Shown here: piece after piece, positions 24,909-29,880 of the stretch | Layout: each line of letters opens with the position of its first letter | How positions within the stretch are numbered: the stretch's first letter is position 1 | Origin: an uncultured Coriobacteriaceae bacterium | GTDB lineage: Bacteria > Actinomycetota > Coriobacteriia > Coriobacteriales > Eggerthellaceae | Length of the DNA: 38,350 nt | Direction: 5' to 3' | NCBI GenBank assembly: GCA_902788545.1 | Contig: CADAKR010000002.1 | Span: forward strand, 1 to 38,350 | Notes under the pieces: generated by a model | The model's input: the letters and a program-made list of their open reading frames with translations, nothing else | Database searches by the model: none | Told to the model about the DNA's origin: nothing | Translations under genes and position numbers: made by a program

Positions 24909-25035
24909 GAGTGCACCTCTCGCCCCGGTCGCTTCACCATTCATACCGCGCACGCGAGGAGCCCGTATGAAGAAACGCCCGCCTTGACACAAGGGCGACA
25001 GGATGTTTGCCATTCTGAAAGAAACACACGCAATT

Positions 25036-25081
25036 GGACACTTGCCTCAAAGGTGGACGTCCGCCCCTGAGGCAAGTGTCC
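25036..25081. repeat. 46-bp palindromic element, copy B
   Basis: GGACACTTGCCTC (25036-25048) is an exact inverted match of GAGGCAAGTGTCC (25069-25081), around a 20-base centre with GGACGTCCGCC. Compared with copy A at 4196-4241, the arm triplet GTT/AAC has become ACT/AGT, so pairing is kept while sequence changes. Confidence 0.85.
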
Positions 25082-25093
25082 GGGTTTGGGCGG

Positions 25094-25837
25094 TTAGGAG
25101 ACGAGGCTGAGCGAGGTGATGGGCCAGACGGTGGCGACCGCCTTGCCTTCGATGGCGTCGTTGGAGACGAAGTCGGATTCCGTGGTCAGGCCGCTGGGCG
25201 TGGCGTCTTCGGCGTCGCCGAGGACGTAGTAGGAATCGTCGGGCACCTCGCGCGTCGTGATGGAGCTCGCATTCGAGCCGAACACGCCGTTCGCGCTATC
25301 GGTGGTAAGCGCCTCTTCGCTGACGGCAACCGTGCCATCGGGCGATACGCTGACCCAGTTTCCGGGTTCGGCGACGATGCGGCCGAATTTCACATCGCCC
25401 GAACCGTCATGGTAGGCGACCACGTGCCCCGTCTTGAGCTCGTGCGCCTTCACCGTGACGACGGCATGCCCTTGGGACATGACGGGCTCCATGGCGCCGT
25501 CGGACACCGCGCGCGCCGAAGCGCCGAAATGCAAGATGGCCGCAGCAGCGGCGCCCACAAGCACGAGCACCAGGAAGACGACGAGGAGGATCTTGCGCCT
25601 TCGCGCCTTTCGCGCACGGGTCAGCTCGTTGCGATAGTCGGCCGCCGTGTAGCGCGGGGGCATGTTGTTGTCGGCAGGCGAAGGGCCTGCTTCGGAGGAT
25701 GGGGTTGTTGCCGGGGCGTTGGAGGCAGCGGCCATGACGTTCTGGGGCGCCGGCATGTTCATGCTGCCCGACAAGGACGGCATGCCCACTGGACCGGAAA
25801 GGCCTGCACCAAGCGGGATAGCCTGGTCGTAAGCCAT
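25094..25837 (-). CDS. Signal peptidase I-like membrane protein lacking the catalytic dyad
   Basis: A 247-residue protein: a Met/Pro/Ala-rich cytoplasmic part (1-75), basic RARKARRRK, one membrane helix (about 82-101) and an outer domain resembling type I signal peptidase (S26). The order of boxes is right: DGAMEPVMSQGHAVV, then VKFGRIVAEPGN, then VPDDSYYVLGDAED. But the catalytic Ser of the SMxP box is Ala (AMEP), and the Lys expected before R-I-V is Gly. It should therefore be inactive, unless the nearby K150 substitutes. ATG at 25837 has GAGGGG upstream and lies 5 bases after the preceding stop, so it is co-transcribed with the coiled-coil gene. Confidence 0.75.
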   Translation of the reverse strand: MAYDQAIPLGAGLSGPVGMPSLSGSMNMPAPQNVMAAASNAPATTPSSEAGPSPADNNMPPRYTAADYRNELTRARKARRRKILLVVFLVLVLVGAAAAAILHFGASARAVSDGAMEPVMSQGHAVVTVKAHELKTGHVVAYHDGSGDVKFGRIVAEPGNWVSVSPDGTVAVSEEALTTDSANGVFGSNASSITTREVPDDSYYVLGDAEDATPSGLTTESDFVSNDAIEGKAVATVWPITSLSLVS

Positions 25838-25842
25838 CGTTA

Positions 25843-26643
25843 TCACCCCTCGGCTGGACGCGCATGACGGCCGCGCGTCGCCACGGCAACCGTCGGCGAT
25901 TGCTGTCTAATGGCCTGCTGGCGAGCCGCCCTTTGATGAGCCGCTTGCTGTTGAACGGCCCGCTGCTGCGTTTCCTGACGCTGTTGCTGAACGGGCTGCT
26001 GCCGTTGCTGGGATACCTGCTGAACAGCCCGCTGATCGGCGATCTTCGCGCCCGCAGCTTCCCGGGCTGCGCTGCTGGCGACCTGCCGCTGCTGCGAGGC
26101 TTGCGCATCGCTGCGCACGGCCGCCTGGCGATCGGCGTCTTCCCGCGCGGACTGCATGATGGCTTCGGCCTGATGGTTCGCACGCGAAATGATTGAACGG
26201 GACTGGCGTGTTGCATCGGCAAGCATGGTTTCCGATTGCTTGCGCGCCTCGGCGAGGATGGCCTCTGCCTGCGCATTCGCCCTGTTCACGGTTGCGCGCG
26301 CCTGGTTTTGCACGCTCCGCGAAGAGGAATCGGCCACGGCCTGCTGGCCCGCCTGCGGCTGTTGCCCGGCAGCGCCCGTACGGGCGGCGAGCTGATCGCG
26401 CATGCGCTTGATTTCGCGCAGGTAGTCGTCCGCGGAGCGTTGCACGGCCTCGAAATAGCCGTTCGATTGCAAGGCGAGCTCGGCGATCGAGCCGATCTTC
26501 GCTGCGCGGGACACGGCAGGTTTCGCCGCAAGAGCATTCCTGAGCTGGGCGTTTTCCGCCTTGATTGCATCGTTCTCTTCCGAGAGCTTCACCATGAGCT
26601 CGAGCAAATCAAGTCGGCTGAGATGCTTCAGACTTTTATCCAT
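25843..26643 (-). CDS. Coiled-coil protein with Gln-rich C-terminus
   Basis: A 266-residue protein. It starts MDKSLKHLSRLDLLELMVKLSEENDAIKAENAQL, a short coiled coil, then a segment with YFEAVQRSADDYLREIKRMRDQL and repeats of the form RANAQAEAILAEARKQSETML, as in DivIVA-like or tail-fibre-like scaffolds. From about residue 200 it is mostly Gln, Ala and Arg (QQRQQPVQQQRQETQQRAVQ). There is no signal peptide. A cytoplasmic scaffold role at the membrane is inferred; it is co-directional and nearly contiguous with the dead signal-peptidase-like gene. It lies divergent from arsR. Confidence 0.7.
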   Translation of the reverse strand: MDKSLKHLSRLDLLELMVKLSEENDAIKAENAQLRNALAAKPAVSRAAKIGSIAELALQSNGYFEAVQRSADDYLREIKRMRDQLAARTGAAGQQPQAGQQAVADSSSRSVQNQARATVNRANAQAEAILAEARKQSETMLADATRQSRSIISRANHQAEAIMQSAREDADRQAAVRSDAQASQQRQVASSAAREAAGAKIADQRAVQQVSQQRQQPVQQQRQETQQRAVQQQAAHQRAARQQAIRQQSPTVAVATRGRHARPAEG

Positions 26644-26741: not shown

Positions 26742-27080
26742 ATGACCAAGAATAACGACCATATAAGCGAAGCTATGTCAGCATTCGAGGCGGACATGCC
26801 CGACGAGGAGATCCTCTACGATCTGGCCGACCTGTTCAAGGTGTTTTCGGACACGACCCGCATCAAGATCCTGTATTCGCTCATGGGCGGTGAGCTGTGC
26901 GTGGCCGACATCGCCGAGACCATCGGCGCAACGCAAAGCGCCGTGTCGCATCAGCTGCGGATCCTGAAGGCATCGCGCCTCGTGAAGTTCCAGCGCGAAG
27001 GGAAGAATGTGCTGTACTCGCTCGCCGACGACCACGTGTTCACCATGCTTGCGGTCGGCATGACGCACATTTGCGAATAG
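26742..27080 (+). CDS. ArsR/SmtB-family metal-sensing repressor, alpha-5 zinc-site type
   Basis: A 112-residue winged-helix repressor. ELCVADIAETIGATQSAVSHQLRILKASRLV is the recognition region. The alpha-3 CxC metal site is not complete (CVAD). The C-terminal helix has D96-x-H98-x10-H109-x2-E112, exactly the alpha-5 zinc ligand spacing of SmtB/CzrA; E112 is the last residue. It should release DNA on binding Zn (or Co). No efflux pump is next to it; the divergent coiled-coil gene is its nearest potential target besides itself. AAGGGG precedes the ATG. Confidence 0.92.
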   Translation: MTKNNDHISEAMSAFEADMPDEEILYDLADLFKVFSDTTRIKILYSLMGGELCVADIAETIGATQSAVSHQLRILKASRLVKFQREGKNVLYSLADDHVFTMLAVGMTHICE

Positions 27081-29669: not shown

Positions 29670-29880
29670 ATGCTTGGCACCTCCTTTCTTTTCCAAATCG
29701 GGTTCCGCTCCTTGGTGGAACCGTTCCTTGGAAAAGAAACGACCCCTGCGCCAAAAGACAGCAGGGGTCGCAACAGCCAAATCATTTGCAACCACCTCGG
29801 CGGGCCGCTTGCGCGTTTGAGCCTTTCGGCACCAGCTGTCTTCGGTAGCGGAACTGCTAACAGTTCACGCTGCGGTTAAG
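29670..29880 (-). promoter_or_regulatory. L10 leader with terminator-like attenuator
   Basis: The untranslated region before rplJ contains CGCAAGCGGCCCGCCGAGG (minus strand, within 29792-29813), which resembles the L10 leader core bound by L10-L12. Further down, CGACCCCTGC and GCAGGGGTCG (29740-29770) form a 10-bp stem followed by GTTTCTTTTC, a good intrinsic terminator. A third nested stem (TTTTCCAA/TTGGAAAA, GGTTCC/GGAACC) lies between it and the ribosome site. This layout suggests autogenous control by attenuation. Confidence 0.75.

What the first reader, a model, noticed from the sequence alone, without database searches (positions are those of the whole stretch)
25094..25837. Signal peptidase I homologue that has lost both catalytic residues
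The order and spacing of S26 boxes are retained (SMxP-like, RxxxxPG, VPxxxYYVLGD), but Ser is Ala in AMEP and the general-base Lys position is Gly. A retained fold without catalysis suggests a binding or regulatory role, perhaps with its coiled-coil neighbour.
Basis: partly seen in the sequence, partly recalled or inferred. Interest (0 to 1): 0.6.

Follow-up and report, generated by a model that had tools for sequence, protein, structure and literature searches.

The report
Inactive signal peptidase with coiled-coil partner
In a group of uncultured gut bacteria, a protein-cutting enzyme of the kind that serves surface pili has lost all its cutting parts, and in some relatives its whole outer half, but has kept its inner tail beside a coiled-coil partner gene, so it probably now works as a membrane anchor rather than an enzyme.

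Summary
Window 25094-25837 (minus strand) encodes a 247-aa single-span S26 homologue with Ala at the nucleophile position (A115) and Gly at the general-base position (G152). Box E (SxDSR) is gone too. All six full-length orthologues (window included), from one Eggerthellaceae genus, lack the dyad: Ser position A/D/R/T/L/R, Lys position G five times and R once. Intact lepB genes exist in sister species; the window's genome holds the 3' part of one. The ectodomain is under purifying selection, so this is not a pseudogene. The closest solved structure is Streptococcus pyogenes SipA (dyad replaced by Asp and Gly), so a dead S26 protein is a known kind.

What is new is the context. The gene forms a two-gene unit with a DivIVA-like coiled-coil gene. 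The same pair, with an active S26, sits in Coriobacteriia pilus islands, once as one fused ORF. The cytosolic motif E[LIR]x[RKQ] is retained in 17 of 18 active pilus-type proteins, 6/6 dead ones and 5/5 'stubs' that have lost the ectodomain but kept tail and membrane span. Best reading: a pilus-type signal peptidase converted into a membrane anchor for the coiled-coil protein. Binding is inferred, not shown.

The parts
25094..25837 (-). S26-fold pseudoenzyme gene, 247 aa, type I signal peptidase homologue without catalytic residues
25592..25837 (-). cytosolic tail (about residues 1-82), Pro/Ala/Ser-rich, ending in a basic helix
   Evidence: sequence and model
25616..25627 (-). conserved cytosolic motif E71-L-T-R74, the E[LIR]x[RKQ] motif
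   Evidence: Glu 28/28, Arg 25/28 in active, dead and stub proteins
25523..25591 (-). membrane span (about residues 83-105)
   Evidence: hydrophobic stretch, helix 65-106 in the model
25097..25522 (-). S26-like ectodomain (about residues 106-247)
   Evidence: PF10502 match 88-238; dN/dS 0.19-0.34 in nearest pairs
25493..25495 (-). nucleophile position of box B: Ala115
25382..25384 (-). general-base position of box D: Gly152
25187..25219 (-). degenerate box E, GDAEDATPSGL (residues 207-217), in place of GDNR..SxDSR
25843..26643 (-). DivIVA-like coiled-coil protein gene, 266 aa, directly upstream and nearly touching; presumed partner
26380..26499 (-). conserved core of the coiled-coil protein (residues 49-88, KIGSIAELALQSNGYFEAVQRSADDYLREIKRMRDQLAAR)

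Best explanation
The gene encodes a signal-peptidase-fold pseudoenzyme related to the pilus-island type of S26 peptidase of Coriobacteriia, not to housekeeping LepB. In that type an active S26 protein is paired with a cytosolic coiled-coil protein, probably to hold pilin processing at one membrane site. In this genus a copy of the pair lies outside pilus islands and has lost catalysis, but kept the cytosolic E[LI]xR helix and the membrane span. I propose that it now anchors or recruits the DivIVA-like coiled-coil protein at the membrane through that motif. Where the ectodomain remains, it is a non-catalytic binding domain in the envelope. Shown: loss of dyad and box E in all orthologues, conserved pairing with the coiled-coil gene, one fusion ORF, motif conservation, purifying selection, clean ectodomain deletions in sister species. 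Inferred: physical binding, membrane recruitment, ectodomain ligand, and the scaffold role in the active ancestors.
For: Dyad and box E lost in 6/6 full-length orthologues. They form one clade (100/100) that falls with pilus-type S26 rather than LepB; profile-profile match to pilus-type S26 E 3e-36 over 206 columns including the tail. Coiled-coil gene directly upstream of all 6 full-length and 5 stub genes, and upstream of or fused to 16 of 18 active pilus-type S26 proteins seen (fusion L116). Islands checked by profile carry class C sortase and/or SpaH/EbpB-type pilins next to the pair (L101, L111, L114, L117). The coiled-coil genes of the two settings are homologous (hhalign E 4.6e-22). Motif Glu 28/28 and Arg 25/28; the one active pilus-type S26 without it (G010, L115) also has no coiled-coil neighbour. 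Stubs: syntenic gene in G014, G008, G009 against full-length G012 (same downstream gene) and in G013 against full-length G005/G010 (same downstream oxidoreductase-type gene). dN/dS of the ectodomain 0.19 (G005-G010) and 0.23-0.34 among G000, G004, G007.
Against: No interaction was measured or modelled. One active S26 (G223, L118) has the motif but no adjacent coiled-coil gene. Purifying selection on the ectodomain where it is kept says the ectodomain does something, which a pure anchor model does not explain. Three genomes of the genus show no coiled-coil hit, so the pair is not essential. Most genomes are fragmented MAGs; the window's own is 74% complete. The attachment point of the dead clade in the tree rests on long branches (warning).
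Confidence: 0.55

Rival explanations
1. SipA-like assembly factor: the dead ectodomain binds pilin or sorting-signal peptides and helps a sortase (class B, encoded elsewhere in the genome) polymerise or anchor surface proteins; the coiled-coil partner only positions it.
For: Best solved relative by sequence and fold is SipA, with the same kind of dyad loss (PMC4049620). Genomes G000 and G007 hold class B sortases, the class that works with SipA. A related Ser-only, Lys-to-Gly S26 in G023 lies beside a class B sortase and a pilin-like gene. The ectodomain is under selection.
Against: The dead gene is not in a pilin/sortase cluster at any of its six full-length loci. Five species have deleted the ectodomain but kept tail and span, among them some with several sortases.
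Confidence: 0.2
2. Relic under decay: an active pilus-type S26 was carried along with the coiled-coil gene, lost catalysis and is being eroded; neither ectodomain nor tail has a function of its own.
For: Residues at the Ser position vary freely, branches are long, and the ectodomain has been deleted in at least two lineages.
Against: Frames are open in all six full-length genes; ectodomain dN/dS 0.19-0.34 in the nearest pairs; the tail motif is kept in 11/11 dead and stub proteins.
Confidence: 0.12
3. Regulator of secretion: the dead fold binds signal peptides or LepB substrates without cutting and so buffers or delays pre-protein processing.
For: S26 fold in the right topology and constraint on the ectodomain.
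Against: No evidence that the peptide cleft is preserved; the model is too weak to judge (pLDDT 63). Deletion of the ectodomain in sister species argues that this is not the core function.
Confidence: 0.08
4. Active peptidase with a shifted catalytic residue (for example K150 or another Ser).
For: K150 lies two residues from the base position.
Against: K150 is not conserved, no Ser is conserved near box B, and box E is lost. In SipA the equivalent Lys is exposed and dispensable.
Confidence: 0.02

Closest known systems
SipA of Streptococcus pyogenes (PDB 4n31, 4k8w; PMC4049620)
   Same: Membrane-anchored S26 fold with both dyad residues lost (Asp48, Gly85) and an exposed Lys two residues before the Gly; best solved S26 relative by sequence and by fold.
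   Different: SipA lies in a pilus gene cluster and is essential for pilus polymerisation. The window gene is outside any pilus locus, is paired with a coiled-coil gene, has other residues at the Ser position in most orthologues, and has relatives without ectodomain.
Active pilus-island S26 peptidases of Coriobacteriia (for example L038, L101, L111, L114, L117); LepB2 of Actinomyces oris, reported as required for pilus assembly, may be a functional analogue (reference cited in PMC5817204; not compared by sequence)
   Same: Same cytosolic motif, same upstream coiled-coil gene, same ectodomain outline; nearest relatives in the tree.
   Different: They keep Ser, Lys and the DSR of box E, and those checked lie with pilin and sortase genes.
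Housekeeping signal peptidase I (LepB)
   Same: Same fold and box order; the window protein passes the NCBI signal peptidase I cut-off.
   Different: LepB has the dyad and box E, and its tail lacks the E[LIR]x[RKQ] motif.
DivIVA/Wag31 (for the partner)
   Same: Coiled coil; weak match to NF050102 (29 bits).
   Different: Far under the 260-bit cut-off; has its own conserved core, GSIAEAALQANGYFEAAQ.

Membership tests
Type I signal peptidase (S26A, LepB) | S26 profile match over the catalytic domain | tested here: met
   PF10502 E 6.5e-10, TIGR02227 above cut-off
Type I signal peptidase (S26A, LepB) | Ser nucleophile in box B | tested here: not met
   A115; A/D/R/T/L/R across the six
Type I signal peptidase (S26A, LepB) | Lys general base in box D | tested here: not met
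   G152; G in five, R in one
Type I signal peptidase (S26A, LepB) | Box E SxDSR | tested here: not met
   TPSGL and similar in its place
SipA-type inactive S26 of pilus clusters | S26 fold without Ser-Lys dyad | tested here: met
SipA-type inactive S26 of pilus clusters | Encoded in a pilin/sortase cluster | tested here: not met
   No pilin or sortase gene next to any of the six full-length genes in the stretches read
SipA-type inactive S26 of pilus clusters | Preserved peptide-binding cleft | tested here: inconclusive
   Models of modest confidence, pLDDT 63
SipA-type inactive S26 of pilus clusters | Required for sortase-driven polymerisation | not testable with these tools
   Needs a deletion strain
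Coriobacteriia pilus-island S26 plus coiled-coil module | Homologous coiled-coil gene immediately upstream | tested here: met
Coriobacteriia pilus-island S26 plus coiled-coil module | Cytosolic E[LIR]x[RKQ] motif | tested here: met
   E71-L-T-R74
Coriobacteriia pilus-island S26 plus coiled-coil module | Active Ser-Lys dyad and pilin/sortase neighbours | tested here: not met
DivIVA/Wag31 (partner protein) | Profile match above the curated cut-off | tested here: not met
   29.3 of 260 bits

The most novel reading that the evidence does not exclude
A pilus-type signal peptidase has been converted step by step (active pair, dead pair, ectodomain-less stub) into a catalysis-free membrane receptor for a DivIVA-like coiled-coil scaffold, with E[LI]xR as the docking motif; the active relatives would use the same scaffold to place pilin processing at one spot on the membrane.
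Probability: 0.4. Interest if true: 0.65.

Novelty: new variant of a known kind. Interest (0 to 1): 0.5.

Why it matters
Dead S26 proteins are known chiefly from SipA, whose mode of action is unresolved. Here is a second lineage in which active relatives, dead forms and ectodomain-less forms can be compared, and in which one cytosolic motif outlives the enzyme. If the motif binds the coiled-coil protein, it would show that Gram-positive pilus signal peptidases can be tied to a cytoskeletal-type scaffold, a link for which I found no report in the papers searched. It also shows that the standard signal peptidase I profile accepts a protein without catalytic residues.

Tried and rejected
Ectodomain-only structure prediction was no better than full length (pLDDT 63.5), so the cleft and the geometry of K150 could not be judged and no superposition numbers are claimed beyond Foldseek. 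Assembly or frameshift artefact as cause of dyad loss: rejected, as six separate assemblies agree and the frames are open. Assembly error as cause of the stubs: unlikely for G014, where about 75 bases separate the stub from the next gene, and for G008, where the called frame of the next gene reaches the stub's stop; at G011 a repeat follows the break, so that stub is less sure. Origin from LepB: rejected by the tree and by profile comparison. Alternative base K150: rejected (not conserved). Literature searches for a signal-peptidase/coiled-coil pilus pair gave nothing on point. Rfam showed only the L10 leader of the ribosomal operon nearby. My motif scan by regular expression missed several rows because it mistook Ala-rich tails for membrane spans; the count is anchored by hand instead.

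Full report
1. Observation. The ORF at 25837-25094 (minus) encodes 247 aa: a long Pro/Ala/Ser-rich cytosolic tail, one membrane span (about 83-105) and an S26-like ectodomain. Pfam Peptidase_S26 E 6.5e-10 and TIGR02227 signal peptidase I 49.9 bits (cut-off 47) place it in the superfamily. In a joint alignment the nucleophile column is Ala115, the base column Gly152, and box E 'SxDSR' reads 'TPSGL'.

2. Orthologues. Five other species of the genus carry a full-length orthologue: G004, G005, G007, G010, G012. Named contigs of the same lengths are Eggerthellaceae/Coriobacteriaceae MAGs, two of them titled from deer. None has the dyad. With the window, the Ser position is A, D, R, T, L, R; the Lys position is G in five and R in G012. 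Loss is thus universal in the set, while the replacing residues vary. K150 is not conserved. dN/dS of the ectodomain is 0.19 for G005-G010 and 0.23-0.34 among G000, G004 and G007 (larger distances are saturated), so the frame is under selection.

3. Intact enzyme elsewhere. Canonical lepB with Ser and Lys is present in G001, G002, G008, G011 and G014 of the genus. In the window's own genome (74% complete) only the 3' part of a canonical lepB is held, cut by the end of contig C126; its catalytic part is outside the assembly.

4. Origin. A maximum-likelihood tree of 31 S26 proteins puts the six dead proteins in one clade (100/100) that falls with the pilus-type S26 proteins and apart from LepB (long-branch warning noted, and the exact attachment point is not firm). 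Profile comparison with pilus-type S26 gives E 3e-36 over 206 columns.

5. The gene pair. Directly upstream of the dead gene lies a coiled-coil gene (25843-26643) with a conserved core, GSIAEAALQANGYFEAAQ. The pairing holds at all six full-length loci. In pilus islands of Coriobacteriia an active S26 gene has a coiled-coil gene directly upstream; for five of those coiled-coil proteins homology to the window's was tested (hhalign E 4.6e-22). Four islands checked by profile carry class C sortase and/or SpaH/EbpB-type pilins. In G164 the two are one open frame of 1072 codons, a fusion that suggests joint function; the coiled-coil part recognised there is short, so the reading is tentative. G005, G010 and G012 carry both an active pilus-type S26 and the dead pair.

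6. The cytosolic motif. Anchored on a juxtamembrane Glu, 17 active, 6 dead and 5 stub proteins show E in 28/28 and R three residues later in 25/28 (K 2, Q 1). I placed the anchor by hand in each row, so the count shows conservation of a located motif and is not a blind scan; but the E and R columns are also invariant in the automatic alignments of eight active proteins (E62, R65) and of the six dead ones (E71, R74). The eighteenth active protein (G010, L115) lacks both motif and coiled-coil neighbour; G223 (L118) has the motif but no adjacent coiled-coil gene. The LepB tails scanned lack it.

7. Stubs. In G014, G008, G009, G011 and G013 the gene after the coiled-coil gene codes for only a tail with E[LI]xR and a membrane span, about 51-118 aa. 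G012 (full) and G014, G008, G009 (stub) share the next gene downstream, which I read as a flavodiiron-type protein; G005, G010 (full) and G013 (stub) share a molybdopterin-oxidoreductase-type gene (names by eye, not profile-tested). On a tree of the coiled-coil proteins the full/stub state needs at least two changes. G011 keeps a box-B-like 'TSSM' and breaks off at a repeat. G003 has the coiled-coil gene at a contig end, so its state is unknown.

8. Mechanism. The part that survives everywhere is the tail plus membrane span beside the coiled-coil gene; the dyad survives in none and the ectodomain in six of eleven. The simplest account is a membrane anchor or receptor for the coiled-coil protein (confidence 0.55). 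Binding is inferred. The constraint on the ectodomain where it is kept suggests a further binding role, for which SipA is the precedent.

9. Comparison. SipA of S. pyogenes lacks the dyad (Asp48, Gly85), keeps the fold and is essential for pilus polymerisation (PMC4049620). It is the best S26 match by sequence (E 0.08) and by fold (E 4.3e-5, TM 0.57 by target). G000 and G007 hold class B sortases, the class used with SipA, but not linked to this gene. A SipA-like role in trans is the main rival (0.2).

10. Verdict. Real and not an artefact; a new variant of a known kind (dead S26 protein), of interest for its coiled-coil partnership and the graded series of forms. Limits: MAG data, a structure model of modest confidence (pLDDT 63), no interaction evidence.

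Noticed in passing
L063 (G011:C255), L064 (G009:C19), L068 (G005:C144): One ORF joins a SipW-type S26 domain (SGSMEP, HRV) to a sortase domain: a signal peptidase-sortase fusion in three species of the genus.
   Followed up: no
L037 7562-8227 (G023): S26 protein with Ser kept but Lys changed to Gly, beside a class B sortase and a pilin-like gene: a separate SipA-like case.
   Followed up: partly
L116 (G164:C34): 1072-codon ORF with a coiled-coil motif at the N-terminus and an active S26 domain at the C-terminus.
   Followed up: partly
L102, L103, L105 (genus g60); L104, L106, L107 (genus g52): Coiled-coil genes of the same family with no S26 gene next to them.
   Followed up: no
L098 about 920-1070 (G011): The stub breaks off just after a box-B-like TSSM, followed by repeated copies of GGGGCGCGACTCATT.
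   Followed up: no
G000:C126:6119-6349 (L029): 3' part of a canonical lepB cut by the contig end in the window's own genome.
   Followed up: yes
window 29725-29863 (-): Ribosomal protein L10 leader (RF00557, 47.9 bits) before the L10 and L7/L12 genes.
   Followed up: no
window 25034-25867 (+): 277-codon open frame antisense to the pseudo-peptidase gene; looks like a G+C-rich shadow frame.
   Followed up: no
window 26742-27080 (+): ArsR-family regulator divergent from the coiled-coil/S26 pair; the same type of gene lies next to the pair in L031 and L032.
   Followed up: no
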